A stretch of 64,000 nt of DNA, from NCBI RefSeq assembly GCF_010093595.1, contig NW_022985474.1:5371-69370 (forward strand), read 5' to 3'. The notes beneath the pieces were generated by a model. That model was not told the origin of the DNA and made no database searches. It saw only the letters and a program-made list of their open reading frames with translations. Below, one piece after another: positions 7,115 through 48,621 of the stretch. Both the position numbers and the translations under genes were made by a program. Each line of letters starts with the position of its first letter. The first letter of the stretch is position 1. The DNA is from Mytilinidion resinicola. Taxonomy: Eukaryota > Ascomycota > Dothideomycetes > Mytilinidiales > Mytilinidiaceae.

Positions 7115-7119
7115 CCTAT

Positions 7120-12525: not shown

Positions 12526-12530
12526 CTAGC
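12526..12530. repeat. Target-site duplication CTAGC (left)
   Basis: The five bases immediately left of the LTR at 12,531 are CTAGC, identical to the five bases immediately right of the LTR end at 18,500. Five-base duplications are usual for Ty3/gypsy integrases. Confidence 0.9.
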
Positions 12531-12940
12531 TATTATAATAGCGCTATATATAAAAGGTTAAAAGCTTAAAAAAAAGCGTTAATTAAGTGCTATATATAAT
12601 ACTATATAGAGAATTAAAACGTTGTATAAGGAATAGAAAAACGGGAGACAGGCCACTAGATATAAGGGCGTGGCCGAGCGCGTAGCGTACGGCCTCTATA
12701 CTATTTCGGCGCGTAGCATGTGTATATGCAAGGTTTTTACTAAATTAGGTAATAGGAAAAGGGGGCAGCCGGTAGGTAGCTAGAGCGGGATAGAATAGGA
12801 AGCGGAAGTAAAATAGGAGTAGAGTAGGGTAGGCAGAATAGAAGGCCGGCTAATAGTAGTAGGCCGGTGCAGATTGCTAGAGTTATAGCAATCTGCGGCA
12901 GAATTTCGGTAGGTAGGGTATTGCGGTTAATACTGTAATA
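12531..12940 (-). repeat. 3' LTR of the full-length gypsy element (410 bp)
   Basis: Starts TATTATAATAGCGC immediately after CTAGC and ends TACTGTAATA. It has the same length as the 5' LTR, and the differences are C/T and G/A. The terminal TG/CA dinucleotides appear RIP-mutated to TA. Confidence 0.9.
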
Positions 12941-12949
12941 GTACCCCCC

Positions 12950-24654: not shown

Positions 24655-24656
24655 TA
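24655..24656. repeat. TA target duplication, left
   Basis: TA precedes the inverted repeat ACGTGCAACACAAG and is mirrored by TA at 26,510-26,511, as for Tc1/mariner-superfamily insertions. Confidence 0.85.
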
Positions 24657-28620: not shown

Positions 28621-30388
28621 TTAACCATTCACGTTGGCTATTTCAACTTCTCCTCTCCACGTCTGTCCAAAAAAGTAGAATGGAACGGCCAAGAGCATGC
28701 CTAACGAAACCAGCATGAACATGATCATGTATACTTGAATCCAACCGCTTGACGCAACCCAATCCACGGCAGTATACAGAAACAGGAACGCGACAAGATT
28801 CTTAAAGACATTTATGGCGACTAGACACTCTGCAACAACTCTAGGATAGCACTCAACGACGTAGGTAACGGCAATGTTGGGCGCGTATATCGTCCCGAAT
28901 GATACTGCAACCAATCAGCACAGTCAAAACGACTAGATGGATACTTACCCATGCCAAATCCGAACGCGATTGCAACCCAGTGCAGCTTTTCAGAGCAGGC
29001 GAACGCAATAAGGATGCATCCGGCAGGGGCGATTAGACAACCAGGGATGAGCGCCACTAGCCGTTGCTCCGGATACACAGCGCCTTTCTGCTTCCTGATA
29101 ACAACCGCGGTGATAATATCAGCAAAATAGCCGCCGGAAAAGCAGCCGATCAAGAAACCAATAATCGCCGCAATCTGCATGAGTCCGACTTCACTACCAG
29201 AAAAGAGATAAGGCGGCGCAAGGAGCAAACTTGGAAACGCGAATCTGCAGCCGTCAGCGTCAGTCTTACCGATTCAGGTCAGCTTACATGAGAATGATCT
29301 GAGATGCAAGACTAGTTCCATAGATAAAAGTAGCTAAGAGAACACTTGGCCGAAGAAGCATCTTGAGTGGACGAAAGGCCACCTTCAAAATATTAATCTC
29401 AGGGTCGATGGTGAATACGCTCGTCCAGATACTCAACCAAGGCTTGGGTACAACGCTGACACGATGGCGGGAGATGGTTTCCGTTCTCACAACCTGAACT
29501 TTCTCGTCATCTCCACTTGTCACCGAAACATGATGTAGCGACTCTTCCGGTCTGTTGAAGTTGGACTCTGGATATAAGAAGTAAATTCCCACAGTGTTCA
29601 CACCAGCGAGTGCGGCACAAACCCATACATAGTCAACCCATCCACCGCGGCTATATTGTACGATGAACGATGCTATGAGCGGGCCAATTGCCGTGGAACT
29701 GGAGACGAGGATTGTATACCTTCAGTGTCGATTAGCATTTATCGCGTTAAGTTAAAGTTACTGAACTTACCCAGACATCATAGCGGCATGTTCGTGAAGA
29801 AAGAAGATGTCAGAGACAATGCTGGGGACAATACTCTGCGATGGGGTTAGCTTTGCAGCATGTTCATGTCGGAAACTCTCACTTCTCCTGCCGCTGATAC
29901 AAAACCTGACAAACATCTCGCCGCTAAAAGGCCAGTAAATGCTGTTTCCTTCGCGGTCCAAATGAGCACAGCGAAGAGCATCAAGGTCGAGATGAGAAGC
30001 GATGCTCGTTTGCCGAACTTGACGCCGAGCGGTACCCAGAAGAGATTTCCAATTCCGAGAAGTAAAAAGTTGAACTAGACGAGTAGTCAGAGCTAAACCA
30101 CATTCCATGCGCTGAAGCAAAACTCACAGTTAGCAGTCCGTTGACCTGATTTGGCGTTTTGTGGAATTGCGCTTGTAACACTGGAGTTGCAACGGAGAGG
30201 CCTGCACCAGCAAAATTTGCCGTAAAGTTGGCAAAGGCTGTGGCACCAAGTGCAGCTAGCTTTAGACTTCGAGGCCATCGCAGTGGGTCTCTCTCGTCAT
30301 CGGTGGGATGTGGAATGAGAGGTAAGCCGTGGTGTTTGGCGGCGGCCTGGTGTATTTCGTTGGTCTTGTTGGAGTCAGTTGTCGACAT
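28621..30388 (-). CDS. MFS transporter, DHA1-like drug/aromatic anion porter
   Basis: Six exons splice into one uninterrupted frame of 509 residues: 30,388-30,128; 30,074-29,883; 29,835-29,771; 29,719-29,288; 29,244-28,949; 28,904-28,621. All introns are 43-53 bp with GT-AG ends. The cytosolic N-terminus carries ERDPLRWP, the usual lead-in of fungal DHA1 transporters, followed by about twelve hydrophobic segments. The first loop has PLGVKFGKR, matching MFS motif A. A long central loop (about residues 220-290) separates the two halves. It would work in the plasma membrane as a proton antiporter or substrate importer. It diverges from the DUF3237 gene, and its position in the cluster suggests uptake of aromatic acids or export of toxic intermediates. 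No lesion was found. Confidence 0.85.
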
Positions 30389-31025
30389 CTTCGAGGAAAT
30401 GATGGATCTAGCAGGAACTCAAAGAAGGATTGTAAATCAGCAGAGATCCAAATAGCGACGGCAAACCTTTATAGACACAAGGGGTTGAGATCTCGATTTG
30501 CCGTTGAAGTTTCCCGCTCGGATATGCTCGCTCGAAAACGCGTTATGTTTAGCCTTTTTCTCCACATACCCCAACTTTTCATGCGGAGAACTCCAGTGTG
30601 GCTTTCGACTATTCTAGGGGATATTGACGCTAGGATGCGGTTATTGGAGCTCGAGGACTAATACTCGCTTGGGCCGCCCCGAGTTTCGGGGAGATGGGAG
30701 GGGTCGGGGAGTTAGGAATCATAAGAAGAATCGACACTTTGTGCAAGCCAATTACGGCATGTCGAAACAAAGATTAGACCAGCTACATTGCTGGCCTAGA
30801 CTGTAGACTGAGTCGAAATTTACTATCTAACATTTCTATCCGACGCACGCAGGTCAACACTAATGGCGAGCAAGCCAGGCCGCGGGAGTACAATACTGAC
30901 CATTGTACCACACAATATCACTCACTGGCTATCCTTACTATATTTTCGAACATCATAAGAAAGACCCTCACTTTCACCGTTATCTCCTCATCTACGCTTT
31001 CTGCGCCGAGAAACCACCAGCAATC
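30389..31025. promoter_or_regulatory. Divergent promoter region between MFS and DUF3237 genes, with inverted repeat
   Basis: The MFS gene reads left and the DUF3237 gene reads right from this 637-bp interval. At 30,677-30,691 lies CCCCGAGTTTCGGGG, a 6-base inverted repeat with a 3-base spacer that also contains CCG-N5-CGG. The core GAGTTTCGG recurs on the opposite strand at 36,554-36,562, in the divergent promoter of the regulator and gentisate dioxygenase genes. It is a plausible binding site for the cluster regulator; this is inference. Confidence 0.4.
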
Positions 31026-31506
31026 ATGACCCCGAAGCTCGATTACGCTTTCACTTTACACGTCGATCTTGCTCCTCCCCATGACTTTGGCAAAACCGCT
31101 GGAGGTGAAAAAAGATTTGTTCCCATCACTAGAGGGTGATTTCGTAGGGCCTAAACTCGAAGGAAGAATTCTTCCAGGTGGCGGGGATTGGAACGCTGCT
31201 AGGCCAGACGGTGTGGTACATGTCTTTGCCAAGTACACAATCCAAGCCGAGGATGGAACTCTTCTCAACGTGACCAACGAAGGATACGGCCGAGCAAGTC
31301 AGGAGACCATTAAGGCAGTTTTCGGAGACGAGCCATCGAAGGCGTCAATGGCAGAGGGAGGGGCGGCGTGGTATACAAAGACATTTCCGAGATTCGAAGT
31401 AGCCCTTGGACCACTTGGATGGCTGAACAGTGCTTGCTTTGTTGGAGATCTTCTCCCCCCGAAGGTTCTAAATCATGTTAAAATCGACGTCTATGAGATT
31501 TTGTAG
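31026..31506 (+). pseudogene. DUF3237-family protein with a frameshift
   Basis: The first frame from ATG 31,026 reads MTPKLDYAFTLHVDLAPPHD up to FVPIT, then runs into TGA. The continuation DFVGPKLEGRILPGGGDW and RPDGVVHVFAKY is in the next frame. Together they give the whole DUF3237 beta-barrel of about 155 residues, so one extra base near 31,126-31,137 splits the gene. A Met at 31,069 could start a shortened 145-residue protein lacking the first strands. The family has no firmly assigned reaction but often lies beside aromatic-degradation genes, as here. A sequencing error cannot be excluded because only one base is involved. Confidence 0.75.
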
Positions 31507-31931
31507 CTGATACATACTTCATGACCATTTTAATATCAGAATAGAAATCAGATTTGACATGGACTTTTACTTCGACTGAGCGATATGATATTACGAATTG
31601 CTCAGCATAAGACGCAAGCCGATAGTGCATTCTGAGAAGCCGGGGAGGGTGTGTTAGCTTGATCCCAGCATTAGACGGAGAGGATGGATTCCGGCGGCTT
31701 GCTTCCGCGTCTGCGGCATCTGCGGCTCGGAGGACTAGCACGCTTTTCTTCTTCCCCGCCGGAGTAGGTGCTGGCAGAGCATCGCTAGCGACGCGTGAAC
31801 AAGCTCAAACATATATCACTAGGCCAGCCATAGACCAAAACTCTGCCATTTACGATTGTATCACGCACCTTTGCACCCGTACATACATCCCTCGAGAAAA
31901 AGATTCGACCAGTCGTCCTGTATCGAGAGTA
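31507..31931. other. Intergenic, promoter side of the monooxygenase
   Basis: 425 bp without a supported gene. The plus-strand frame upstream of ATG 31,932 is open but has no recognisable sequence. Confidence 0.4.
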
Positions 31932-33698
31932 ATGCTGGCCGATATGGTTCAAGTCGTCGAAGACTATACGCCGGTGGTCAATGGCACTGCATCTACCGTG
32001 AAAAGTCGTAAAACATATCAACAGGCTATCGTAAGCTCCCAACCAAGCCTGACAGCTTCGTATCTGTCTCAGTCGTTACGATTCCTTCAGAAACTGAGAA
32101 GCAAGGAAAACTTCACTGAAGAGCCGCGTTCCTCTAGTCATCCAACACCAGCACGCCTCAGATTAAACATCGTGGTTGTTGGAGCAGGACTTGGCGGGCT
32201 TTCTCTTGCCATTGCTCTAGCTCGAAGAGGACACTCCGTGCGAGTACTGGAGCAAGCTTCAAAGCTTGGAGAAGTGAGTACCACCTCTATCCATCCTTCA
32301 AAGCGTATCCCAATCAATCGATCCAATAGGTGGGAGCAAGTATTCAAATTCCTCCAAATTCTGGACGGTTGCTCCACCGATGGGGAGTCTTTGAATATTT
32401 GGAAAAGTGGGCAGTCAAGCCAGAAGGTATCAACTTTCGAAGATGGGAAGATGGACAAGCCATAGGCTACACTGCTCTCGGGAAGACATTTCAAGCAGAC
32501 TTCAATGTGCCTTATTATGTGGTCCATCGTGCTCACTTCCATGAAGCTCTGCACCAACGAGCGTCACAACTGGGTGTAGCGGTCGAATTGCATTCCAGGG
32601 TCGTAGGGTACAGTGAACAGAAATCTTCAGTTGTACTAGACAGTGGCACCACTATCCAAGGAGACTTGGTGATTGCCGCTGATGGTAAGTTGAAGAGTGC
32701 CTTGCAAGTTGGAATCTCCATCCCTGCGGTGGCTAACCGGGAGATTCAAGAATCAAATCAAAAGCACGGCAAGCTATTCACCCAGGCCTTTGCCAAGATC
32801 CCCAGTTCAATGGCTTCGCTGCGTATCGAGCAACAGTCGACGTCCAAAAGATGCAAAATAGTCCCGAAATTGCCTGGCTTCTAGAGAAACCTTCGTTGAA
32901 CATCCGGTTTGTCCAACTTTCACTCAACGTCGCCGTTGAGGTCTCTAGTCATGATCGAGGACTCTGACAACTGGTTGCGTAGGATTGGCGAGGACAGACA
33001 TGTCATGACATACACAATCGCCGCAGGGGAGTCATTCAACATGGTTTTATCTCACATTGACCGTTCTGAACCGGCGACCTGGACAGAGAAGTTTGCCAAA
33101 GAACACATCCAGCAAGAATTCAGTGGATGGGATCCTCAGTATGTAGCGAGCCTGAAGTTGAACTTGTTGAAGTAGCTAACCAAGCTTTTGCAGGTTGACG
33201 AAAATCATCTCCCTAATCGATGAATGCATGAAATTGCCACTGAAAGTCGGAAGACAGTTAAAGTCTTGGACTTCACCCTGAGCGAGATTGGTAATTATCG
33301 GTGATGCTGCTCATGCTATGCTGCCTTACATGTCGCAAGGTGCCGCCATGGCCGTCGAAGATGGTGCCGCCCTTGCTGTCGCCCTGAACCACATCTCCAC
33401 TATCGACGAACTCCCATTCGTGCTGCGGGCATTTGAGAAAGAACGAATCAAGAGAAGCAGCGATATGCAGAATGCCAGCACGGTAAATGGACTAATTTGG
33501 CATTTTGCGGATGGCCCAGAGCAAAGAGCGAGAGATACTTCCATGGCCGCCGAGGTTGTGGGTTCTCCGTTTACCAGCAGTGCAAATCAATGGAGCGACC
33601 CAGTCACTCAATGGTGGGCGTATGGATACGACGCTGAGAGCAAAATGGAAGAGGCCTGGGACGAAGCCGTGCGGGCTTTGATCATGCGAGCGGGTTGA
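31932..33698 (+). pseudogene. FAD-dependent aromatic-ring monooxygenase (hydroxybenzoate/salicylate hydroxylase type), one internal stop
   Basis: Five exons (31,932-32,273; 32,330-32,684; 32,744-32,906; 32,983-33,138; 33,194-33,698) join in frame to 506 codons. The FAD dinucleotide-binding motif is VVVGAGLGGLSLAIALARRG near residue 80. The second FAD motif is IIGDAAHAMLPYMSQGAAMA near residue 395. Group A flavoprotein hydroxylases use NADH or NADPH and O2 to hydroxylate benzoates; here the likely product is gentisate, given the dioxygenase nearby. A single in-frame TGA at 33,279-33,281, in a segment reading SWTSP then ARLVIIGD, lies just before the second FAD motif. Termination there would lose about 140 residues including the FAD-contact GD. 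The substrate (3-hydroxybenzoate or salicylate) cannot be decided from sequence. The gene ends 26 bp from the convergent regulator gene. Confidence 0.85.
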
Positions 33699-33724
33699 CT
33701 GAAAGGGGATCGAGTAGCCCTATG

Positions 33725-36520
33725 CTAATGTGAAGACATGAAATTGAAATCCGAAGTACCCAAGAGATCGTCCAAACTCATGCCCATGTGGGAGTCAGTT
33801 GCATCGAGAAAGTCAAACAAGTCATGCGACTGGAAATCATTTGGCGCTCGTCGCAATGAAAAGTCTCCAGGTGGGTCGGTTGAGAAGTTACCCGAGCGTA
33901 ATGCTTGCGCCCCTTCTGGTTCGTCTAGGTTGAGTGTCAAATGGTGCTCGTTGAAACGCGATGCCGACATGACTTACAGATTAGAGATAGAAGATGAGCC
34001 AGGGAAGTTGTATATCGGACGCATTTCTCCGTCATTCTATTCCCTTTGAACAACAGTTTCAAGCATTCGATTGCTTGGTGAAGAGACCCCACCGACAGGT
34101 TAATATCCTCAAGTGCTAGGGGATGGTTATAGATATTTGCTTGATGCTGTACAAGAAGTGTGGAAAATATAACGAGAGCGGCATTGAACGCTGTACTGCT
34201 ATGAGTAGAGAACAAAAGGACGGTGTCTGCAATTGATATACTTACCGTAATAAAGAGAAAACCACCAGGCACCAAGTAGATGTCGAGCAGGACTGGTAGG
34301 AATCAGCACCATTTGCATCAATTTGATAATAGTGACCGCGGAATAGGCACAAGTCCGCAGGCTATTCGTGCCCACTTGCTTCAGCAAAGGTAATTGCTGA
34401 GAGGCAGACTGCGCGCTGCGTATTGACTCGAGGTACTTTGAGAGTAACGGACGATGCGTTAGAATACGAAGATTTAGGAAGCGCAGAGTGAGGATAACTC
34501 TGAACCGAAGAGTGCCGTGTTCGTCTGCATTGGAATCGAGAGTTTCCGGCTCTACTAGCGACAAAGCTGCCGGCAAGGAGTGCTGCCAAATGAGAAACTT
34601 TTGTTCAAACTGCAGTAACTGCGAAGCAATGTCGAACACGTTGTCCGGCACACCACAGCCCAAGTTACTACCGTACAAGACGTCAACGATTTCTCCCATG
34701 ATTTTATAGAGGGTTCTGTTTTGGCGTGAGCGGCATGTCATCAGTTCTTGACGAGATATTCTTACATTGTTCCCGTATAGAACTCAACACTATGTTCGTC
34801 GGTCGAGTTCTGGTGGGAGTTCATTCCGGCAGGAAGAATGCTTTTGAACGAACACGGCAGGTCCAATTTGACAAAATTTTCAGGGATGGAAGCAGGACGG
34901 CCCATAGTCATACTCAAGGTACTATTTTCGATGAGATGACACGGCTCTGTCAGCTTGAAAGTAACTTACCGATCTAATACAACGCAGCCGAACCAGGTTC
35001 TCTTGCGAATCTCTCTTTCTAACGGCGGGTATTGGTTGAGTGCATCTCGTGAGTGGAGGCCGAGCTGATATGCAGCTTTGACGGTGAGTCCATGCACATT
35101 CCAAGTCTCGATGGAGCGTTCAGTGCCTTGCAAATACTGACTCATCAACAACAGAAACTGGACTTATGGAAACATCAGCGACGCCGACGTTATAGGGCTA
35201 ATGCACCTTTACTTACCAACTTCCAAGCTTGTGCCATGGCGGATTTGTTTCTCACAGAGTGCCAAAGCTCGACGGAAGAAAACGTCGGAGTTGGCAGATC
35301 GCTCAGACGCCGTCAGTCCGTTACCGTGACTAGCACTCGTAGACATGGCAAGCACCAAATTCAGCAGACCAAGCCATGACCTCCGTACTGTCCGAATGTT
35401 TGCAGATGTAAGTTCGTGATACGTGTTCAAGAACGCCTCCTCGTCGATGTATGGAAATAAAACGCCCGTGGTGCTAAAGAATCGCTCTATCATCTTCACT
35501 GTTTCATTTTCTTGTGGGAGAACAGAGGGTTCTGTACCAATGGCGATGCTGTATGAGTCCTTGGACGGATCTGATACAGGAGAGAGTGGCCGGGAAACAT
35601 GAAGAAGTTGACTCTGAAGGGCGGCATTGCTTGGCGAAGCCGGACTTCCATCCGATGCGGCACTTTTGAGGACTGCGGTTGTTGTGCGAACAATGAGGCG
35701 GGTAAATGATATGTTGGACGATGGCCCTGGACCCGTTAGTTGCCAGTACTCATGGAGCTCTGTGAAAGTATTCCAACCAAAGAAGCCAGACTCCTCTTCT
35801 TTAGTGAACGAGACAGAGCCCATTCCATCCGTAGGATCTTGAGTCTCAACGATCGTTCCCTCATCATCCTGAAGACTAAGAAGATCAGGAGTATGAGTCG
35901 GTGGTGATTGGCTAGAACTTGCATTTGCGTCTACAATATCGGCTCTGGAACCTTCAATACGGGTCACTCTACTAGATATTCCACCAACGGAGCTTTCAAG
36001 TGCGGCTAAGCGAGACTCAAGTGCTTCCAAATACCTGCGACGGGTAAGCTATAAGAGTAAGAGGGTACCAGTTCCGATTGAAGAACCGACTCTTTGGACG
36101 CAGAGGTTTTGGTTAAGGGTGTTAAATTCAAATATGTGCATTCATATCCGTGATCGGTGCAGGTAGAACACTTTGGTCTTGCTCCGTCACACTATGAAAA
36201 GTCGTGAAACGTCAGTAATTAAAGTGAAACAGGAAGCGCATAGTGGACACGCCAGCACGTGAATTTGATGAGAGTTGCGCCTCATGCAGCATCGGTGTTT
36301 CCAACCCCAAAGCATCGTGCTTGAAGAGCAAACTGACAACTGGAGCGCAATCCCTAGGCTGCTAGAGGGCCGGGAAGGACAACAGACTTACGCGGGACTT
36401 GCGCTGCCTGCACCACGTACAAGCTATCGTGATCCTGTTCCGTTTTGCTGGTCTTGCATCCGCGCCGTGATTGGTGGAGATGCTGGCGTGCGTTCTGGTC
36501 GCTGCATCGGTCGACGCCAT
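33725..36520 (-). CDS. Zn2Cys6 transcription factor, probable cluster regulator
   Basis: ATG at 36,520 opens exon 1, which ends at 36,392 with the first half of the zinc cluster (ACTWCRQRKSR). A 200-bp intron (36,192-36,391) splits it from CDGARPKCSTCTDHGYEC, giving C-x2-C-x6-C-x6-C-x2-C-x6-C. A short coiled-coil linker follows (YLEALESRLAALESSV), then the fungal-specific transcription factor domain (LFPYIDEEAF, LSMTMGRPASIPE). Further introns lie near 36,055, 35,180, 34,950, 34,740, 34,210 and 33,990. I found no disabling lesion; the acidic C-terminus (DLFDFLDATDS) may activate transcription. The gene is divergent from the gentisate dioxygenase and convergent with the monooxygenase, typical for a pathway-specific regulator. 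Confidence 0.84.
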
Positions 36521-36785
36521 GCCTAGGGTACAGGGAACCGAGTCAACGTAAGTCCGAAACTCCCTTTCCGAGTCCTTCGGGGACTTAGAGTCTGGTGTAG
36601 CCGGAGAAAATGGTGGAGGAGCAGGGCTGAGCGGGGAGCGGGGAAGTAAAGACCCCTTTCCACCTTACCCGACCCGACCCGTCTCCACTCTCCCCGCAGC
36701 TCTCAGCCTTCCTAACTCCCCGGCAAATGGTCCAGCCATCGATCACAATTGCCATAGTTGATTATGCAATTATTGAAATCGTCTT
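36521..36785. promoter_or_regulatory. Divergent promoter between regulator and gentisate dioxygenase genes
   Basis: 265 bp shared by two divergent genes. It contains CCGAAACTC at 36,554-36,562, the reverse complement of the core in the MFS/DUF3237 promoter. It also contains CCGAGTCCTTCGG at 36,568-36,580, an everted CCG-N7-CGG pair of the kind bound by Zn2Cys6 proteins. Confidence 0.4.
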
Positions 36786-37896
36786 AGAGCTCCCGCTTCT
36801 ACAACTATTACCAGCCAGAATGGCGTTTCAACGCGGCTTGACCAGCAGCAACTGACGGAAACCCTGCTAAAGACGGCTGAAGACTATCACACAAAGCCAC
36901 TATGGGCACAGATGGCACACCTCAATCCCCCTTTACCTAATCCAAAATGTCAACCTCACGTTTGGGAATACGAGAAGATCCAACCGAGTGTGCTACAAGC
37001 TGGTGAGCTCATTACTGAGAAACAAGCGGAACGACGTGTATTAATGCTCGTAAATCCCTCTCGAGGTAAGAAACCCCCTCATGAATATTAGAAGGCTCAC
37101 GCGTATGCAGAGGCGCCTTACACGACTGATACCATTTACGCTGGGCTTCAGCTGGTTATGCCCAACGAGACCGCGCCAGCTCATCGCCACACTGCCTTTG
37201 CCTGTCACTTTATCATCGAGGGTAATGGTGGCTTCACTGCTGTGCATGATTGACGCATCCAGATGCAACGCGGCGACGTTATCTTGACCCCGACCTGGAA
37301 CTGGCACGATCACGGCAAAGATGGCTCCGGACCGATGATTTGGCTGGATGGCCTTGATCTCCCAAGCTTTGTACACTTCCCTGTTCATTGTGTAGAGCAT
37401 TATGCCGACCCACGCTATCCGGCCAAGGACGTAGATACTTCCGCTTCTACCATTGTCTTCCCATAGACCCGTATGAAGGCCCAACTAGACGCAGGCAGCG
37501 GGGAGAGCACGACGAGGGGCTACTTGAAAGCCGATGGATCTGAAAGCACGTCATGGCGGCCTTGCTTTGATTGAAAACTAATAAAGTCCAGTAAGCTGCA
37601 CGCTAGGTGCTGCCGCCACTCGCATCTCTCCAGGAACATCTACTCCAAAGATTCAGGAGACGGCTTCGTCAATCTTCCATGTTATTGAGGCCTGCGGAAC
37701 TTCCACGATTGACGGAAAAGAGTTCAGTTGGAAAAAGTGCGATGCGTTCTGCATTCCTTCGTGGCATGAGTACCAACACCATGCGGGCGATGGAGAGACG
37801 GTGTACTTGTACAGAGTGCATGATAAGCCCATGCTACAACCACTCGGGTTTTATCGATACAATGGGCAAGATGTGGAATCGTTAGTGTCTGAGTAA
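36786..37896 (+). pseudogene. Gentisate 1,2-dioxygenase, start lost and two in-frame stops
   Basis: A cupin dioxygenase that opens the gentisate ring with Fe(II) and O2 to maleylpyruvate. Exon 1 (to 37,065) reads LTETLLKTAEDYHTKPLW and ends ERRVLMLVNPSR; a 45-bp intron follows. Exon 2 has the first cupin with APAHRHTAF and FIIEGNGG and then [13 protein letters not shown], which carry the His metal ligands. The C-terminal cupin reads IFHVIEACGTSTIDGKEF, CIPSWHEYQHHAGDGE and LYRVHDKPMLQPLGFYRYNG, ending TAA at 37,894. Lesions: no ATG in frame (AGA at 36,786 sits where the start is expected), TGA at 37,251-37,253, and TAG at 37,464-37,466 where Trp is expected. The junction near 37,530-37,610 needs one more intron whose donor I could not fix. 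Very probably dead. Confidence 0.88.
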
Positions 37897-38228
37897 ACTG
37901 TTAGGGAATATCTGCTCTGTTGATATCGGAAGGCTGTTTTACTTCAATAGCTTTTGCAGATATTTTCTCCCATGATCTTATTTGATGATGTACATTTGCT
38001 GTGACTCCCCCTCAAAGAATTGAAAGCAGTGTTTCCGATCGACTGTGTAAGCTAGGTAAGCATGTAATCCTTCTTTTGATCAGACATTTATTTTAACGAC
38101 AAAGACGTAGAGTTGCTGTCAACAGCCACGATTCATTCTTCTTGCACGAGGAGACGAAACCATTGCGCAGGATTCGCGATGATGAAGCTCTCCTGAATTA
38201 TTCATTGTGATCTCATGATAAAACGCCG
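37897..38228. other. Intergenic between convergent genes
   Basis: 332 bp between the dioxygenase and the FAH-family gene, which converge here. No coding signal. It should contain both polyadenylation regions. Confidence 0.5.
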
Positions 38229-39159
38229 CTATGCGAATTTGACCCCGTTCCTAAGAGTGCCAATCTTGCTTATTGAAATTTCCATGACCGTTCCCGGCAC
38301 AAGATATTTCGGTGGCTGCAGCCCAGCTCCAACGCCGCCCGGAGTTCCCGTCATGACCACTGATCCCTTGCGCAACGTTGTACCCTGAGATAGATAATAC
38401 ACAAGATATGCACAATCAAAGAGCAAATCGCTGATGTACTCTTTCTGCCTCACTTCCCCATCCACAATCGTCTGCAACAACAGTTCTTTAGGATCTCCAA
38501 TCAACTCAGAAGCAATGAGCGCAGGACCGAGCGGAGCAAACGTGTTGAAGCCTTTGGAGAAACCCCATTGCGGAACTCGGCCTGCCAGATTCGGGTCGCG
38601 CTGCATTTTGCGCGATGATACGTCGTTGCTGGCCGTGTACGCAGCAATATAGTCCATTGCACTTTCGAGTGGAACGTCCTTCGCATCTTTTCCAATCGCC
38701 AAGACCAACTCGCCCTCATAGTCTGCTTGGTCATTTTGAGCAATCTGAGGAATGATAACATCTTCATCATGATCGTGGACGCAGGTAGAAAATGAATGGA
38801 AAAGGCGGTGGAGTTCGACCGGCTTCTCTGACTTCAAAACATCAGCAGCGCGTAACGGGCAGTATTGGAGGCCATTAATTACTATGTTTGGCATAATTGA
38901 GCCCTACGCAGCGCAGAATGTCTAGGTTATTTGGTGCGAGTGGTCCCAATAGCTTCTTGACGGTGACAATCTCATTAGAAACTCTGGTCACTCCTGAGAT
39001 GTCGTATGGGTCTTCTCCGATGATGACTTTTGCCTGTAGCTTGGCGTCTTCAGTAGTCCTGCTCAAGTCGAAGTCTGGATCCGGGAGAATTGGCCCTCCG
39101 CGAAGAAGACGACCATCTGTGGCGACAAAGCGAATCAATCTGGGCCACGTGACTCGCAT
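38229..39159 (-). pseudogene. Fumarylacetoacetate hydrolase-family enzyme (fumaryl/maleylpyruvate hydrolase type), frameshifted
   Basis: Exon 1 (39,159-38,883) reads LLGPLAPNNLDILRCVGLNY. A 51-bp intron (38,832-38,882) follows. Exon 2 reads REAGRTPPPFPFIFY and then must change frame near 38,785 to continue STCVHDHDEDVIIPQIAQND. The rest is the FAH core: DYEGELVLAIGKDAKDV, with acidic metal ligands, AYTASNDVSSR, GFNTFAPLGPALI and GTPGGVGAGL. The missing bases look like a slipped deletion between two TCTAC copies. The enzyme would hydrolyse the ring-opened product of gentisate to pyruvate plus fumarate or maleate, finishing the pathway. It diverges from the aldehyde dehydrogenase gene across 321 bp. 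Confidence 0.84.
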
Positions 39160-39480
39160 CTTCGGAGGCTGTATGGGAACTGGATATCTGCATTAAAATC
39201 CGGCAGATTTCGGTTTTAGAGTCCCTCGAATAGCTTCAAGGCAGTTTAGTAGCCAGCGGGACGCCGGGCCCGGTATGTATATCCTACATCGGATGTCGGC
39301 TTCCCGCCCGTGAAAGCCGCAACCCAATCAAGGACCTCCCCACAGAATTTACTCCTAAAGGTAAAGTGTCTGCCAGCAGACCCCTCAAGCATAAAATATT
39401 CCACAGGCTGCAGGAAACTGGTCGTCCACCCAACAAATAAAGAACCCCCGATTCGATCAGTCTCCAAATCACAACAAGTC
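39160..39480. promoter_or_regulatory. Divergent promoter between FAH-family and aldehyde dehydrogenase genes
   Basis: 321 bp. It contains a CCG/CGG pair (CCGGCAGATTTCGG, near 39,200) loosely similar to the motifs in the other two divergent promoters. An 88-codon minus-strand ORF here shows no domain. Confidence 0.3.
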
Positions 39481-41070
39481 ATGACAAATTCCACAACCGT
39501 TCCACTCATCATTCATGGTGTTGACGTCTTGAACGGATCCGCCAACGAGCCTGCTTCGTTATTCAGGCCCAACCCAGACAACGATAGCAATCGTGGTGTC
39601 TATGCCGCCGGGGCGACACCAGCATTATGCGTACAAGCAGTCGAATCGTGCGCCGATGCATTCGCAACTTGGAGAGATTCGCAGCCGTATGAACGGCGGA
39701 GGCTATTCAACAACCTTGCAAAGGTAACCATGAGCACATCAAATACTATGAAGGTAGATTCTGATAATTTGACAGCTTCTTCGGGCTAAAGAAGGCGAAA
39801 TACAGACGCTTATAGAGCAAGAGATTTTGTGCTCGGCCTTATGGGCAAAGATAAATGTCAACGATTCGATTGCACTAGCCGAAGAGGTCGCCGCCACAGT
39901 AACTTCCGGGGTCTTATCCGGTCTGGCTCCCATTATAAGGGATCCAGAGGCACATGCAGTAGTTTTTAAAGAGCCATTTGGTGTGGTGCTTGGTATCGCC
40001 CCATGGAATGCACCACTGATCCTCGGACTTCGAGCTGTTGCCGCAGCAGTAGCCGCGGGAAATACTGTCTTGCTCAAAGTGGGTTACCAACTTGCTGATG
40101 TTTGGCTGAAGCAATGATAACTGACGCGACGTAGGGGTCTGAAATCAGTCCTAGAACCCACTATTCGCTCGCGAAGCTCTTTCAGGATGCTGGCTTCCCT
40201 CCAGGAGTGGTCAACTACATCCAACACTCCCCGGAGGATGCGGTGAGCTGCTTCGAAGCCCTAATATCTCACGGCGCTGTGCAAAAGTGTAACTTTACTG
40301 GTTCTACGGCAGTTGGTCGGCATGTTGCGCAGCGAGCCGCATTCTATCTCAAACCCGTGGTCCTGGAGCTAGGAGGCAAAAACTGCGCCATCGTGCTTGA
40401 GGATGCGGATCTCACAAAAGCGGTGGACCAGGTACTACTCGGAGCGTTTCTCAATGTAAGTCGATGAACTCTTCAAAAAGATGGGCTTTCTGACTGTCTG
40501 GAATAATAGTCTGGCCAAATCTGCATGTCCACGGACCTGGTATTAGTGGCACAATTAGTGGAGCAGCAGTTCCGAAGACTTCTACATCAGAAGCTGTCAG
40601 ATGGTTCACAACAGGTTACGGAGGTCATCAGTCAGAAAAGCCGGTCAAGAATCGATGCACTCGTCAGTAACGCAGTACAAAAAGGGGCAAGCACAACGAC
40701 GGCAGAAACGGGGACTCGTGCCTCGTCAATCATCATCGGAGATGTCACTCCACACATGGAATTTTGGGAGCAAGAGTCATTTGGACCATTGCTGGGCTTA
40801 CGGGTGTTCGATGAAGAGGAGGCAGCTATCCAGATGGTGAACGATTCTCCGTACGGATTATCGGGCGCGATCTTCAGTCGCAACTACCTCAAGGCTTTGA
40901 AGCTCGCGAAAAGGCTTAACATGGGCGCTGTCCATATTAACTCAGCCACTGTGCACGATGAAGCTTGTTTGCCGCACGGGGGCAGGAAGGAGAGTGGATG
41001 GGGACGGTTTGGGGCGCACTGGGGCTTCGAGGAATTCCTACAAACGAAAACCATCATCCTGCATCCTTGA
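39481..41070 (+). CDS. Aldehyde dehydrogenase, salicylaldehyde/vanillin dehydrogenase type
   Basis: Four exons (39,481-39,723; 39,776-40,078; 40,135-40,455; 40,510-41,070) splice into 475 residues without lesions. The cofactor region includes FGVVLGIAPWNAPLILGLRA and AGNTVLLK. NFTGSTAVGR is the NAD-binding glycine turn. LELGGKN carries the general-base Glu and GQICMST the nucleophile Cys. ESFGPLLGLRVF and NDSPYGLSGAIFS match the C-terminal signature. The family oxidises aromatic aldehydes to acids with NAD(P)+ in the cytosol. Here it fits between the oxygenase, which would release aldehydes, and the monooxygenase, which needs benzoates. ATG 39,481 is chosen because the family N-terminus begins directly there; an upstream ATG at 39,310 adds unrelated sequence. 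Confidence 0.88.
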
Positions 41071-41779
41071 CTGGAGTCGAGATAATCAGCGTTTTCCTAA
41101 CCCTCTTACTGCTGGAGAAGAAATGCAAATGTCTGAAGTATAGCAGGTTGTCAAGCTTGTGACCCTTTGCAACGCGGTGAGCCTCGATCGGGACACAACG
41201 CATGCGGCTAGGGACACTTACTAGGTAGCAAAACGGAAATCAATACTCAAACACCCGCTTTGCATACACTTACAAGTATCTCCAGTGTTGCTATGCTACC
41301 CGTAGACCATGCAATTTGCCAAGCCTTCGAGTCCGTTTGACGCGTTGCCTGTGTTGCCTGTGTTGCCTGTGTTGCATGTGTCGCCTGTGCTGCCTGTGTG
41401 CCTCCATCGCCATTGCAACTCTTCTCTTCTCCTCAAAGTCTTTTCCGGTGATAGTGCTTCTCGGCCGCGTTCCGGCTTCCGGTCCCCTCTTCCTCTTCTA
41501 TAACCCGCCGGCCATTGGGATGTGACGCTCAAAAGATGGATTCTGCCGCCCAATCGGACGGACGCAAAGCCATCGGGGAGTTAAGCTTCTCATATCCGGG
41601 CGTGCCTGCTCCGCTCGCGGCGCGCGGCATCGCGTTGCAAGGAGCAGTATTCTAGGGGCTATTTAGCGGCGCAGAAGCCCATGCCGCTAAAGTTAAACCA
41701 TCTCAATTCGGTTCGACCTCACCAAATCCCTCTGCGAAGGAGTTCTTAGCAACGGAAGTCGAGCTTCAACAATATCAGT
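41071..41779. other. Intergenic upstream of the carotenoid-oxygenase gene
   Basis: 709 bp with no supported gene apart from a short 9-bp tandem repeat. The oxygenase promoter should lie in the right part. Confidence 0.5.
41343..41402. repeat. Short tandem repeat, 9-bp unit TGTTGCCTG
   Basis: About six to seven copies, the first three perfect and the later ones with single changes (TGTTGCATG, TGTCGCCTG, TGCTGCCTG). The overlapping short ORFs in both directions are repeat-derived. Confidence 0.8.
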
Positions 41780-43431
41780 ATGGCCGGCCACTTCAGATCA
41801 ACACACCCAAGGAGCGCGTTTCCCGATCTCCCGCAGTTCTCGGGCTTCATGAAGCCATGTCGTTTCGAGGGAGAGGTCCAGAATCTCGAAATCCGTGGCG
41901 AAATACCCTCCGAAGTCGACGGCACATTCTATAGAGTCATGCCAGATCCGCAACTGTCCCCACTCATCGAAAATGACCCGGTACGCGAACCCTCCCTGCT
42001 GCGACTTCACCGCGATGACCACCATTGGCTGATTCGGTAAATGTAGTGGTTCAATGGAGACGGCAACATCAGCGCGTTTCGAATAAAGGACGGGCACTGT
42101 CATTTCAAGCAGAAATACGTCAGAACCGAAAAGTTCGTGAAAGAGAGAGAGGCGAAACGAGCCTTGCTTGGTAAGATGCTCCCATGTTTACCTTCTTGAA
42201 GATTTTCTTACTATTCCCTTAAAGGCAAGTACCGCAATAAGTTTACCGACGCTGTGGAATTCAAGGTTCGAAGCACCGCAAATACCAACGTCCTGTTCTT
42301 CAATGGCCGTCTGCTTGCCTGCAAAGAAGATTCTCCGCCATATTCTCTCGACCCGGAAACGCTCGAAACAATTGGTCTGGAAGGTTTCGATGGCCAACTG
42401 CCCTGTTTGACTTTTACAGCTCACCCAAAACTCGATGGCGACGAGCTTCTTTGCTTCGGCTACGAAGCTAAGGGTGATGGCACTCCCGACGTGTGCTACT
42501 TTACTATTGATTCTACTGGAAAATTCACTGAAACTGTATGGCTTGTTGCACCTATCGTGGCGATGATTCATGATTTCGCCATCACAAAGAATTGGGTAAG
42601 ATGACGCGTCCTGCTAAATACTTCTGAGACCGATGATTAACGGACTTAGGTATTGTTTCCAATTATTCCACAAATATGCGATTTTGAACGTATGAAAAAA
42701 GGAGGCGAGTACTGGTAATGGGACTCAAACGTCCCATTCTATCTCGGAGTCCTCCCACGCCATGGTGCATCTGGTTCCGACGTCAAATGGTTTCGCGCGC
42801 TAAATGCTTTCCCAGTTATACCGTTAATGCTTATGAAGACGATTCGGGCAATTTGGTGTTTGATCTGCCACTCACAGATAAGAACGTGTTCTTCTAGTAG
42901 CCAGATGCCGACAGCAATGCGCCCAAACCCGAGACAATTGCAGCAAAACTCCTCCGATTCACTTTCGATCCTCACTCTACCGATCTCGACCTCCCAGAGT
43001 CTCAAATCATTGGCAGCGAGGACTGTGAGTTCCCTCGCATTGACGAAAGATTCTCAGGAAAAAGGCATGTGCATGCATTCTTTGATTTGATGGATCCGCG
43101 GTTGGGAACTGACTTTGGAACAATTGCACCTAGAATGGGCGGTGGACACCCGCTATACAATGCATTGGGCCATCTTGACTACAAGTCTATGAAGATTCAA
43201 AAGTACTTCCCAGGTCGAACACATCTAGTGCAGGAACCGGTCTTTATTCCAAGGAAAGGTGCAGATACGGCCGAAGGCGACGGTTGGGTTGTGGCTCTCG
43301 TCAATAACTATGCTACCATGGGCAGTGAGTTGCATATCGTGGATACTAGAGACTTTGAAAAATCGCAAGCAGTCATTGATTTGCCGGTACGACTAAGGGC
43401 TGGCCTGCACGGTAATTGGGTTGACGCATAG
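41780..43431 (+). pseudogene. Carotenoid cleavage oxygenase-family enzyme (lignostilbene/resveratrol-cleaving type), broken
   Basis: Exons 41,780-41,980, 42,047-42,170, 42,225-42,595 and 42,650-43,431 rebuild a seven-bladed propeller oxygenase. It would use Fe(II) and O2 to split a carbon-carbon double bond into two aldehydes. All four iron-ligand His regions are present: FTAHPKLDGD, MIHDFAITKN, KRHVHAFFD and GLHGNWVDA. The N-terminus has EIPSEVDGTFYRVMPDP and WFNGDGNISAFRI. The propeller ending and length fit the fungal CAO-1-like branch that cleaves stilbenes. Lesions: TAA at 42,716-42,718, a one-base frameshift near 42,810, and tandem TAG TAG at 42,895-42,900 where the family has two Trp. 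All three stops are compatible with C-to-T change at CpA. Substrate class is inferred from family resemblance and neighbours. Confidence 0.86.
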
Positions 43432-44456
43432 GAATTTGGACTTTTATCGGTGGTCTGACGACTGTGCGGTAGATTCTTGCTTCAGCGCGGTGAGAGATGG
43501 ATTCTAACCCATCGTAAAAAGTTTTATGAGAATGAAGAATTGGATACTTTTAGAGAGTTCAGCTAGACGCTGGCGGCCCGTAACGTGAAGATGATAGCGG
43601 GGGATGTCTATTCCTGGCGCCACTATCTGTCAATTCAACTCATATGCCAGCTCCTCAAACTGGCTTGATAGCAGCATATCATAATGACAATCCAAGAGTA
43701 AGTAGAGCTCAACGACACCCCAAACACCCGCGCGTGATAGCTTCACGGCTTGGAATAGAGTGTCACTCATCCTATCTTATGAACGATAGACTGTGTGCGA
43801 GTTAGATTCCGTCGCATGATAACTCGAGCAACACGGTTACAAAGAGGCGTGAACCCATGGCGTCAATAAGTGAGAAGGCTAGGGAAACCCAGGCGGCTGC
43901 GAGGTGGACCACGTGACATGGCTGCCGCCGAATCTCACGTAGGTAGAAAGAGACATTGTTTTGGATCTGCTTAGGAACAAACACCATCAGCAATGAAGCG
44001 AACGGAGAGCTTAAGATAGGAATACTAAATCTCTGTGCATGCGAGGATAGCGAGCACAGGCGAAAGAAGGAAAGGAGTCGAACGCTAAGCCGAGCAGTCT
44101 CGCTGAACAGTCCAGTAAAAATGGCGGCATGCAAGCTGTAGGCTAACCGCTTTTTTGAAGTGAAACTTAACTTAGTTAGTTTGATTACGTGCAGATTACT
44201 AAGTCGGACTTCCCAGCATGTCCGACTTTGATGCCCGATTCGTCCGACTGGACGCAAGCAGCCGCGAACATACATATAGAGCTTTAATGAAGCATCTCGT
44301 CACAACCACAACTCGAAGCCGACGACATAGTTCCATACTACCCAGATACGCCTCCGATATCACATCGCCACTGGCCGCCGAACATCATTCTGAATTCGCA
44401 AGGACGCATTGCCATAGAATCCCCAAGCCCCTAGCCCAGACAGTCTCCCATCCACA
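43432..44456. other. Intergenic
   Basis: About 1 kb with no supported gene. The 157-codon minus-strand ORF at 43,802-44,275 has no recognisable domain, and its N-terminal half overlaps the leader of the isochorismatase-like gene. Confidence 0.45.
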
Positions 44457-45344
44457 ATGTCCAAATCCATCCAAACCCCATACTACGTCCCCGTTTCCCT
44501 CGCACATACCGCCCTTCTCCTCTCCGATGTGCAAACTCAAATCCTGGCCCGTTTCTCCAAAGAGGTCCAACAATCCTACCTCACCGAAATCCAAAAGCTT
44601 CTGGATTTTTTCAGGTCCCAGATCGCCCTTGCAGAATCCGCGGGACAACCCGGGAGCGAGAATGCATTCAGCGGCGTGCCGTTGATCGTGCACCACACGC
44701 TCCCCTTCAATCTGAACAACAACGCCTTTGTGAGCCCGTACAATAAGCTAGCGCATTGGGTAAAGGGTTTGGAAGAAAAGGGGTTCTTTAAGGTAAACAT
44801 GATATTCCAAGCAAAATCGGGCGTCTGAGAAGATCTTCTTGAATCAATGCTGACGGCTTGAGATGCTGTGCAGACAGTGAACGCGAATCCGCACACGCCC
44901 AACTTCTCCATCCCGTCTTCCCTAACCCCACCAGGCGGCTGGGGCGCGTCGAAAGACGAGATCGTACTTGGAAAGCTTCAACCAAACTGCTTTGCGTCTT
45001 CGGATCTGCTAAAGTACCTTCACGCGCGGGGAATCCGGCACGTGATTCTCGTTGGGTTGACGACTATGGGGTCAATTCTTGGTTCGGCGAGGTGAGTTGA
45101 TGATGTCTTTTACGCCACTTATCGGTGTAGGCAAGTTGTAGTAGTTGATCTGGGAGCTAACGATGGCGATTTGACGAATAGGGGCGGCGCGGATCTCGAC
45201 TTTCATATCATCTGCCCGCGTGAAGCGATTATCGATGACGATGCCGAGGTTGACGAGTTTCTCATGACGAAGGTGCTTCCGAAGTTTATCGATGTCGTCC
45301 AGATGGAGGATGTGCTTGCGCTCGGGAGGGAAGCGGGTTCGTAG
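44457..45344 (+). CDS. Isochorismatase-family hydrolase
   Basis: Three exons (44,457-44,792; 44,874-45,091; 45,182-45,344) give an intact 238-residue protein. The family fold is seen in ALLLSDVQTQ (catalytic Asp), VLGKLQPNCFASSDL (catalytic Lys), HVILVGLTTMGSILGSAR and GADLDFHIICPRE. At the position of the usual nucleophilic Cys the sequence has Gly (TTMGS). As I recall the family, Gly replaces this Cys in true isochorismatases such as PhzD, which hydrolyse a vinyl ether without a thiol; cysteine amidohydrolases keep it. A cytosolic role on isochorismate, the precursor of salicylate, would suit an aromatic-acid cluster or a plant-interacting fungus. The substrate is not proven. Confidence 0.8.
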
Positions 45345-46428: not shown

Positions 46429-48251
46429 ATGATGGTAAACTTTGGGGCCTCCCGAGCATGCCAAACGTGTAAGCAGAGGCGGAAGAAGGTAGAGAACTCC
46501 ACACCATAGCCAATGACTTGTGCTGAAAGTATTCTACCTGCACAGTGCGATGAAAGCCGCCCAGTGAGTACAGTTGCCTCATTCTTTCCCAACTGGAGTC
46601 AAATGTACCATCTTCTCATCGGCTGTAGAACTGCCAGCGATGCATTAAAGCTGGCCGCGTCTGCCTGGGCTACCAGGAGAATTCTAGCGTTTTATTTCGC
46701 CATTACGGCCCTCCAACGCTAAATGAACCACCATCTGCTGTAATGCAGACGCCGACTTCACCGTCTGGAGTAGTGATTCCTGAGCCTGACGACGAGCAAC
46801 TAGAAAGAGACGCGCTGGCGATCTTCTTTGACGATTACTGTGTTGAATCGGCGGATAGAACCATCTCACGTGGGTTCCTTGACGGCCTCAAGCCCTTGAT
46901 TGACCATGCAGGGGAGTCTTCGGATATCGCCCAAGCAGCTAAGATTGTCGCTCTTGCAACGACTGGAAATAGGCTACGCAGGCTGAATATTCTGTGCAAG
47001 ACTAAGCAGCAATACGGAGGCCTGCTTCACTCGTTTCGTTCGACGCTTATGCGTGCCACGGAGTCTGACATGGTAGAGACCTTGATGATTGCAGTACTAT
47101 TAGGTCTCTATGAGGTACGTCCTTTATCGCACTGCGGTCGTCAATTCTGTCATTGACTTAGACTGTTAAGATCGTGAGCAGCACCGAATCAGACCCCGGC
47201 CAGCGCAATGCTCACGTCTCAGGTGTTGGCGCCATTCTCTCCAACAAAGACTCACCATTCGACCTCACCACGGGCACTCGTTTGTTTCAGCTCGGCAATG
47301 CCTTTCTGCTTCCGGAATCTCTACCAGTACGTGCGTGCGCTCTGCACCTTTGTACTACGGCTGATATCAACCAAGCAACCCGAAAATGTCGGCCTGCTCT
47401 GTGCACCGAGTCGCAACGGCTCAGTCTTGGCTCTAGACGGCATTCTCATCAATGTCAACCCTATTTTCAATCTAGCTAACGATTTGTTCGTTGCCCCATC
47501 TTGTCAACTAGAAGATGTGCGGACGCTGCGACAGGAGGCAATAGCTCTGGAGCGACACATATCCACATGGCCCACCAGATTGACAGGAGAATGGGCACCT
47601 CACGTAGTCGGAAACGTTAGCGAGGCTCAACTGAGATCTTCCCACTCCCCAGGCTGGCCAGGAACGGTTGACAGCTACTTCGACCGTGAGTCGTGCTATT
47701 CCCAATTCACGTTAACGACCTAACTGATGCAGTATATGTTGCTGCAGTTTGGAACACATATCGAAAGACGCATCTGATGATTTTGGACATCATCGTCAAG
47801 TGCTCGAACTACCTCGAGCCAAGCGACGTCTGCTTCGAACTACACCCCAAAGCTCGACAGCTTGCCAACGACATTGCTGCCTCAATTCCTTATCACCTGA
47901 CAAATGACGCCGCTAAGTATCTTCAACACGTCCAGCACGGCGTGGAAGCACAATATGACGGGCGGCCGGTGGGCGGCTTGCTGGTACTACATCCACTTTG
48001 GGTCGTTGCCAATGCTTCGGTCGTTTCCCATGAGTTGAGCACCCATATGCGCAACGAACTTTCGTGGATTGGGCACGTAATGGGGATTGGGCAGGCTAAC
48101 CAGCTTGCTAGCGTGAGTTCCTGCACCAGCGATAGCCGGCGAGAGAACGAAGGCGACTAATTCTTTCTAGTCACGTGCCCTGCTCTCGTCGCAGCATATC
48201 GCTCAAGGGCACGTTCTTATTTGGGCGGGGATGCTGACACAGCCAATTTGA
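46429..48251 (+). CDS. Zn2Cys6 transcription factor
   Basis: Two ATGs (46,429 and 46,432) open exon 1, which ends RACQTCKQRRKK. After an intron a tiny exon encodes CDESRP, and after a second intron the cluster finishes with NCQRCIKAGRVCLGY, giving C-x2-C-x6-C-x6-C-x2-C-x6-C. The rest is a fungal transcription-factor domain (FFDDYCVESADRTISRGFLDG, LMIAVLLGLYE, LVLHPLWVVANASVV, WIGHVMGIGQANQL). The last intron removes 48,113-48,170 and the protein ends AGMLTQPI with TGA at 48,249-48,251. This C-terminal layout is common in regulators next to transporter genes. It lies 370 bp upstream of an MFS transporter on the same strand and may control it. No lesion seen. Confidence 0.78.
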
Positions 48252-48621
48252 GATCTGAGCGACCATTGGGAGCGACCTTCATGGTCAATTACGTGCTCCT
48301 GGAATACCCAGCCCGAGACGCATGGGGATATATCGGCGGACGTGGGTGGTGTTCTCTTCACAAGCGCGCGCAAAGCTAACCCGTTGAAGCAGACGAGCTT
48401 CTGCGCCACGACCTCCCATCCCTGCATTCTCCCAGATTCGATTAGCTTTGCGCGCCGACACGGACCTTGATAGAGAAATAACTGCAGCAAGTATCCGACT
48501 GCGAATTTTGGACAGGTATAAGGCGAAATGCTTCTGCTCCTTCCCAGATAAAGTTCCGATTTCAGACACTCGATTGACTTTCTTTTCTTCAAGAAACCTG
48601 TCAACCTCCTAGTAGTTTGGC
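48252..48621. other. Intergenic, promoter of the second MFS gene
   Basis: 370 bp. The 133-codon minus-strand ORF at 48,203-48,604 has no domain and is not supported as a gene. Confidence 0.45.

What the first reader, a model, noticed from the sequence alone, without database searches (positions are those of the whole stretch)
28621..45344. A possible stilbene-to-gentisate catabolic gene cluster
Seen: neighbouring genes for a carotenoid-oxygenase-family enzyme with all four His ligand regions, an aromatic aldehyde dehydrogenase, a group A FAD hydroxylase, gentisate 1,2-dioxygenase, an FAH-family hydrolase, an MFS porter, a Zn2Cys6 regulator and an isochorismatase-like enzyme. Known: these families perform double-bond cleavage to aldehydes, oxidation to benzoates, hydroxylation to gentisate, ring cleavage and final hydrolysis. 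Inference: together they form a continuous route from plant stilbenes such as resveratrol to central metabolism. I do not know of a described fungal cluster that joins stilbene cleavage to the gentisate route.
Basis: partly seen in the sequence, partly recalled or inferred. Interest (0 to 1): 0.82.

Follow-up and report, generated by a model that had tools for sequence, protein, structure and literature searches.

The report
Decaying fungal stilbene-gentisate gene cluster
This stretch of a bark-dwelling fungus's genome holds a known kind of gene cluster for breaking down plant phenolics, but five of the nine genes in the stretch are broken, while a second copy of the core genes, with enzymes that read intact, lies elsewhere in the genome.

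Summary
The gene families are really at 28621-45344, but the novelty and the working route are not upheld. Greene et al. 2014 (PMC3914699) described this gentisate catabolism (GC) cluster with the same seven genes, including a stilbene dioxygenase, and proposed the stilbene route. In this genome (taken as Mytilinidion resinicola: identical 475-aa aldehyde dehydrogenase) the cluster is decaying. Five genes are broken: carotenoid oxygenase (four stops, one frameshift, third iron-ligand His reads Tyr), gentisate dioxygenase (two stops), FAD hydroxylase (one stop), FAH hydrolase (frameshift) and an unreported DUF3237 gene (frameshift). Transporter, regulator, aldehyde dehydrogenase and isochorismatase-like genes read through. 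A second core (FAH, gentisate dioxygenase, FAD hydroxylase, regulator) lies on contig C42; its three enzymes read intact, and Pfam scans of 30 kb there found no stilbene oxygenase, aldehyde dehydrogenase or MFS. The two other RPE65-family genes found are far from the stilbene-cleaving group, so canonical stilbene cleavage is probably lost here. Ordinary in kind; mildly interesting as a cluster caught during loss.

The parts
28621..30388 (-). MFS transporter (mfsG-like), 6 exons, 509 aa, reads intact
   Evidence: GT-AG model without internal stops; PF07690 E 1.5e-29 over profile 2-345/347. The homologue search failed because I gave the wrong frame.
31026..31506 (+). DUF3237 gene, frameshifted at about 31138
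Evidence: PF11578 profile 1-38 matched in one frame and 26-149 in another; the two frames overlap at 31138-31139, leaving no room for an intron.
31932..33698 (+). FAD aromatic hydroxylase (sahG-like), nonsense codon at 33279-33281 just before the GDAAHAM motif
   Evidence: tblastn with the C42 paralogue; stop located. The start codon is a candidate only and the introns were judged by eye.
33937..36520 (-). Zn2Cys6 regulator (ctfG-like), 8-exon model of 695 aa, reads intact
   Evidence: one 38-nt intron is unusually short; Zn_clus and Fungal_trans
36777..37896 (+). Gentisate 1,2-dioxygenase (gdoG), nonsense codons at 37251-37253 and 37464-37466; no in-frame ATG upstream of the conserved N-terminus; second intron shows no GT donor at the position where its paralogue has one
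   Evidence: start and donor judged by eye. The residue aligned with position 127 (Arg) of the solved enzyme 4fag reads His here and Arg in the C42 copy.
38229..39159 (-). FAH-family hydrolase (fphG-like), frameshift at about 38788, convergent with gdoG
   Evidence: tblastn with the C42 paralogue gives two frames that overlap by 2 nt, so no intron fits
39481..41070 (+). Aldehyde dehydrogenase (adhG-like), 4 exons, 475 aa, intact
   Evidence: identical to M. resinicola P0121; 0 of 112 conserved columns violated; best solved relatives salicylaldehyde dehydrogenase 6qhn and vanillin dehydrogenase 9ihb
41780..43431 (+). Carotenoid oxygenase of the lignostilbene/CAO1 group (sdoG): stops at 42716, 42895, 42898 and 43429; frameshift at about 42814; third iron-ligand position reads Tyr
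   Evidence: The last stop lies only a few codons before the usual C-terminus.
44457..45344 (+). Isochorismatase-like hydrolase, 3 exons, 255 aa, reads intact; probably a neighbour rather than a pathway gene
   Evidence: PF00857 40 bits over profile 86-134 of 175 only; Ser where the family's nucleophile Cys is expected (motif recalled, judged by eye)

Best explanation
This is a degenerating copy of the known gentisate catabolism (GC, 'gentisate-like') cluster of the type that carries a stilbene dioxygenase. In its intact relatives the inferred scheme is: uptake by the MFS porter; cleavage of a hydroxystilbene by the CAO1-like oxygenase to two aromatic aldehydes; oxidation by the adjacent aldehyde dehydrogenase to benzoates; hydroxylation by the FAD enzyme; ring cleavage by the gentisate-type dioxygenase; and hydrolysis by the FAH protein to TCA-cycle acids, under the Zn2Cys6 regulator. 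Shown here: gene content, order, lesions, the C42 paralogue, and oxygenase-ALDH linkage by locus tag in some other fungi. Inferred: substrates, regulation, and that the C42 core now carries any gentisate-type ring cleavage while canonical stilbene cleavage is lost.
For: The content matches Greene et al.'s adhG-sahG-gdoG-ctfG-sdoG-fphG-mfsG, and gdoG and fphG are convergent, as they report for GC-MC. There are seven nonsense codons and three frameshifts across five genes. The NCBI protein P0001 (442 aa) consists of six exact blocks of the window's gene plus one joining residue, and leaves out the stretches with the first three oxygenase stops and the frameshift. In the oxygenase, 0 of 98 conserved columns are violated in exons 1-3; the departures (1 of 21 and 4 of 57 columns) all lie in exon 4, which carries every lesion of that gene, which suggests recent decay. 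On C42 the three enzymes read intact (FAH 297 aa, GDO 328 aa, FAD 491 aa). Oxygenase and ALDH carry neighbouring locus tags in Neocucurbitaria cava, Kalmusia and Paraconiothyrium, and tags five apart in Fusarium irregulare.
Against: No raw reads or RNA were available, so assembly error is not formally excluded; P0001 may come from the same assembly and is then no independent support. Regulator, ALDH and MFS still read intact, which a wholly dead cluster need not show. The C42 FAD model needs a GC donor and the C42 regulator was not modelled. 24 of 114 homologues depart as much as the window in the first part of exon 4. I could not test gentisate-gene adjacency in other genomes myself; that rests on the paper. 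In 2 of 6 species with comparable tags the oxygenase and ALDH are not linked.
Confidence: 0.85

Rival explanations
1. The cluster is functional, and the apparent lesions are sequencing or assembly errors.
For: The lesions are known from one assembly here; NCBI gene models of the same species exist for the oxygenase and ALDH.
Against: Ten lesions fall in five genes, while four neighbours with about 5.8 kb of coding (509 + 475 + 255 + 695 aa) read through. A metal-ligand His and a dioxygenase position matching Arg127 of a solved enzyme are also replaced. The P0001 model leaves out the same stretches, though perhaps from the same assembly.
Confidence: 0.08
2. Two unrelated modules sit side by side: the oxygenase and aldehyde dehydrogenase feed the protocatechuate route from 4-hydroxystilbenes, whereas the gentisate genes serve salicylate or 3-hydroxybenzoate. 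(This is about substrates and is compatible with decay, so its odds do not sum with the others.)
For: 4-hydroxystilbene cleavage does not give a gentisate precursor directly (recalled chemistry). A gentisate core exists in the same genome with no oxygenase or ALDH found in the 30 kb scanned around it. sdoG and adhG are only variably present in published GC clusters. The gentisate-like pathway's role is called unclear in print (PMC13094099).
Against: Greene et al. [quoted passage not shown] Here oxygenase and gentisate genes are all broken, while the ALDH is not.
Confidence: 0.35
3. Expression is rescued by A-to-I RNA editing of UAG codons, as known in sexual tissue of some Sordariomycetes (recalled), so the oxygenase is still made.
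For: Four of the seven stops are TAG.
Against: Three frameshifts could not be restored by that editing; one TAA and two TGA codons are further obstacles.
Confidence: 0.02

Closest known systems
Gentisate catabolism (GC) gene cluster of Aspergillus fumigatus, one of 23 GC clusters in 214 genomes (Greene et al. 2014, PMC3914699; abstract, first part of Results and passages seen)
   Same: All seven named genes occur: adhG, sahG, gdoG, ctfG, sdoG, fphG, mfsG. gdoG and fphG are convergent as in GC-MC.
   Different: Four of those seven are broken here (sahG, gdoG, sdoG, fphG), and a broken DUF3237 gene sits inside (not among their named genes). adhG is present beside sdoG, whereas their GC-MC clusters in Pleosporaceae and Sordariomycetidae lack it.
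Gentisate-like cluster (PMC7842363, PMC13094099; passages seen)
   Same: Gentisate dioxygenase, FAD monooxygenase, FAH and regulator; no maleylpyruvate isomerase found in the frames scanned.
   Different: Here there are two copies: one decayed with sdoG, one with enzymes that read intact and no sdoG found.
Gentisate pathway cluster of Candida parapsilosis (PMC8929692, passages seen)
   Same: Six clustered genes for the pathway (MNX2, HBT1, GDX1, FPH1, GFA1, GTF1); the authors call it similar to the stilbene-dioxygenase cluster of Pezizomycotina.
   Different: Lacks the stilbene dioxygenase; encodes 3-hydroxybenzoate 6-hydroxylase instead of salicylate hydroxylase, per the authors.
CAO1 of Neurospora crassa (PDB 5u8x; PMC12051055, passages seen)
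   Same: Same subfamily: homologue P0004 matches 5u8x at 6.2e-199, and the window's pieces match P0004.
   Different: The window gene lacks one of four Fe-binding His and its frame is broken.

Membership tests
GC / gentisate-like cluster | Core fphG, ctfG, gdoG, sahG together | tested here: met
   All four recognisable within 31.9-39.2 kb
GC / gentisate-like cluster | Core enzymes able to function | tested here: not met
   sahG, gdoG and fphG carry stops or a frameshift
GC / gentisate-like cluster | sdoG, adhG and mfsG (variable members) | tested here: met
   Present; adhG and mfsG read intact, sdoG broken
GC-MC type | Convergent gdoG and fphG | tested here: met
   Window 36777-37896 (+) versus 38229-39159 (-); also on C42
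GC-MC type | No adhG in the cluster | tested here: not met
   adhG at 39481-41070
Gentisate-like (no maleylpyruvate isomerase) | Isomerase absent | tested here: inconclusive
   No GST-type Pfam hit in the frames scanned; the minus strand of 38.5-46 kb was not scanned with Pfam
Lignostilbene/stilbene dioxygenase | Membership by sequence | tested here: met
   Window pieces 68% (introns included in the alignment) and 80% identical to P0004, which matches CAO1 5u8x at 6.2e-199
Lignostilbene/stilbene dioxygenase | Four Fe-ligand His and an open frame | tested here: not met
   Three of four His; frame broken
Lignostilbene/stilbene dioxygenase | Cleavage of stilbenes | not testable with these tools
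   needs enzyme assay
3-hydroxybenzoate 6-hydroxylase or salicylate hydroxylase | Closest to these among characterised enzymes | tested here: inconclusive
   C42 paralogue: 350 and 345 bits to 8gsm and 8x38, 326 to 8r2t (no function in its name), 153 bits to 4bjy (PDB label 'probable salicylate monooxygenase'; 3-hydroxybenzoate 6-hydroxylase by recall), 138 bits to salicylate hydroxylase 6bz5; no entry named as fungal MNX2 is among the hits listed
Isochorismatase | Catalytic Asp-Lys-Cys (recalled) | tested here: not met
   Position of the Cys reads Ser in the spliced model (by eye)

The most novel reading that the evidence does not exclude
Two paralogous gentisate clusters in one genome are splitting one pathway between them. 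The C38 copy keeps its regulator, aldehyde dehydrogenase and transporter under constraint while its ring-processing enzymes and stilbene oxygenase die, and the C42 copy supplies the enzymes. The remnant would then still act in trans as the aldehyde-feeding, uptake and control half of the pathway, in a bark-dwelling lineage that has recently given up canonical stilbene cleavage.
Probability: 0.15. Interest if true: 0.5.

Novelty: new member of a known kind. Interest (0 to 1): 0.25.

Why it matters
Surveys tend to score metabolic gene clusters as present or absent. Here one is caught partway through loss, with enzymes broken, regulator, transporter and dehydrogenase still readable, and a paralogous core with readable enzymes elsewhere. 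That makes the order of loss testable. It is also a warning: the public gene model of this oxygenase (P0001) leaves out damaged stretches and one Fe-ligand motif, so a survey by annotation could count this species as having stilbene dioxygenase.

Tried and rejected
Functional continuous stilbene-to-gentisate route in this strain: rejected because four of the enzymes needed carry stops or frameshifts. RIP as cause of decay: the left 18 kb has a strong RIP signature, but 28-46 kb does not, so ordinary mutation is preferred. A frameshift that I first suspected in the regulator disappeared once introns were modelled; my notebook entry still lists the regulator as broken and DUF3237 as intact, and is superseded on both. 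A suspected lost splice acceptor in the FAD gene was dropped because, by eye, an alternative in-frame acceptor exists. The two other RPE65-family genes (C14, C2) as spare stilbene oxygenases: their five best BLAST targets each among the 120 fetched homologues are only 21-35% identical. The MFS homologue search gave nothing because I chose the wrong frame; its 308 candidates say nothing about the gene. The Cochliobolus ChnagG paper (PMC12130555, abstract and passages) proved irrelevant to sahG: that enzyme is a Rieske oxygenase. PMC10735191 and PMC9415585 were seen in passages only and carry no weight here beyond showing that stilbene dioxygenase is used as an anchor in published degradative-cluster surveys.
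Full report
What was checked. The window is G000:C38:5371-69370 of a 47.1 Mb genome. The aldehyde dehydrogenase read from 39481-41070 is identical over 475 aa to P0121, named Mytilinidion resinicola, and P0001, a 442-aa carotenoid oxygenase of the same species, consists of six exact blocks of the window's gene apart from one joining residue. I therefore take the organism to be M. resinicola (Dothideomycetes, Mytilinidiales). The longest-contig figures differ (351,580 for P0001 and P0121, against 340,518 here), so the assembly version or strain may differ.

Gene content. Pfam on frames with X at stops, plus spliced models, gives from left to right: MFS (-), DUF3237 (+), FAD hydroxylase (+), Zn2Cys6 regulator (-), gentisate dioxygenase (+), FAH (-), ALDH (+), carotenoid oxygenase (+), isochorismatase-like (+). 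Both strands were scanned for 28.5-38.5 kb (plus strand to 46 kb); the minus strand of 38.5-46 kb was not scanned with Pfam.

State of the genes. With relatives as yardstick (oxygenase: P0004; others: C42 paralogues), tblastn finds stop codons inside conserved coding of the oxygenase (42716, 42895, 42898, and one near the C-terminus at 43429), the gentisate dioxygenase (37251, 37464) and the FAD hydroxylase (33279), and frame changes with no room for an intron in the oxygenase (42814) and FAH gene (38788). Further stops in the tblastn rows lie in introns. The DUF3237 gene has the same kind of frame change at 31138, seen in the Pfam profile. The oxygenase's third Fe-ligand position reads Tyr. 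In the dioxygenase, the residue aligned with Arg127 of the solved enzyme 4fag (a substrate-carboxylate binder, role recalled) reads His, while the C42 copy keeps Arg. The MFS (509 aa), regulator (695 aa, with one doubtful 38-nt intron), ALDH (475 aa) and isochorismatase-like (255 aa) genes read through.

Age of the decay. Against 114 oxygenase homologues of 470-530 aa (of 119 fetched besides P0001), exons 1-3 violate 0 of 98 columns conserved at 95% or more. Exon 4 violates 1 of 21 before the frameshift (24 of 114 homologues show as many) and 4 of 57 after it, two of the latter being the tandem stops (2 of 114 homologues show as many). ALDH violates 0 of 112 conserved columns (41 reference sequences chosen by length from the 51 of P0122-P0172; their median is 1, maximum 6). 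So the oxygenase seems to have broken recently and the ALDH shows no sign of relaxation.

The second copy. The genome search with the cluster's DNA gave 9 matches: 5 on C42, 2 on C8 (isochorismatase-like gene) and 2 on C3 (FAH gene). On C42 lie FAH (21114-22230, +), gentisate dioxygenase (22958-24062, -), FAD hydroxylase (24655-26357, +) and a Zn2Cys6 regulator (about 28.9-31.3 kb, -). The three enzymes read without internal stops; the FAD model uses a GC donor, and I did not build a full model of the regulator. Pfam scans of C42:8001-38000 on both strands at E 0.01 show no MFS, Aldedh or RPE65 match; exon-by-exon scanning could miss a weak MFS. A cytochrome P450 lies next to the regulator. 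The window ALDH has no close paralogue in the genome: the next most similar gene, C2:2464252-2465843, matches in pieces at 28-63% identity.

Other oxygenases. The PF03055 search found only two further places, on C14 and C2, whose longest frames are 21-35% identical to their five best matches each among the 120 homologues. The window gene is thus the only member of the lignostilbene/CAO1 group found.

Known or new. Greene et al. 2014 (PMC3914699; abstract, first part of Results and passages seen) define the GC cluster in A. fumigatus with the same seven genes, count 23 GC clusters in 214 genomes, and propose that sdoG plus adhG may complete a path from stilbene to TCA-cycle intermediates. PMC8929692 (passages) calls the Candida parapsilosis cluster similar to the stilbene-dioxygenase cluster of Pezizomycotina. 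PMC13094099 (passages) says the role of the gentisate-like pathway is unclear and validation pending. In Scedosporium (PMC8283699, abstract and passages) a related cluster is induced by gentisate and lignin, and its monooxygenase is described as structurally related to decarboxylating 4-hydroxybenzoate 1-hydroxylases; my PDB sequence hits point the same way. Searches run. The six papers naming M. resinicola (listing only) do not look, by title and start of abstract, to concern this cluster.

Synteny elsewhere, from locus tags. Of six species in which I could see comparable tags for both proteins, the oxygenase and ALDH are adjacent in three (N. cava 010062/010063; Kalmusia 013218/013217; P. 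brasiliense 010024/010025), five apart in one (F. irregulare 000955/000960), and far apart or on different contigs in two (R. mackenziei, F. falciforme). One Pseudogymnoascus model (P0139) joins FAH and ALDH domains. These are lists limited to the best 120 hits each, with names cut short.

Verdict. A known kind of cluster, decaying in this genome.

Noticed in passing
window 1-18000: AT-rich block (GC 0.31-0.37 per kb) with a very strong RIP signature (TpA/ApT 1.4-2.2); the 5.4 kb to its left on C38 read N.
   Followed up: partly
window 25391-26224 (-): Tc5/DDE_1 (pogo-like) transposase remnant beside an AT-rich dip, about 2.4 kb outside the MFS end of the cluster.
   Followed up: no
window 24008-24439 (+): Amidase-family fragment.
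   Followed up: no
window 46629-50000 (+): Open frames resembling (by eye) a second Zn2Cys6 regulator, followed by MFS matches at about 48988-49972.
   Followed up: no
L016 (C42:28001-38000): Cytochrome P450 gene beside the C42 gentisate core's regulator; Scedosporium's gentisic acid cluster also includes a P450 (PMC8283699, passages).
   Followed up: no
window 41780-43431: The public gene model P0001 (442 aa) of this oxygenase looks like an annotation artefact: it leaves out damaged stretches and one Fe-ligand motif.
   Followed up: yes
G000:C8:1126778-1129185: Two matches to adjoining halves of the isochorismatase-like gene, in opposite orientation and about 2 kb apart.
   Followed up: no
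G000:C3:803085-803509: A further FAH-family match to the window's FAH gene.
   Followed up: no
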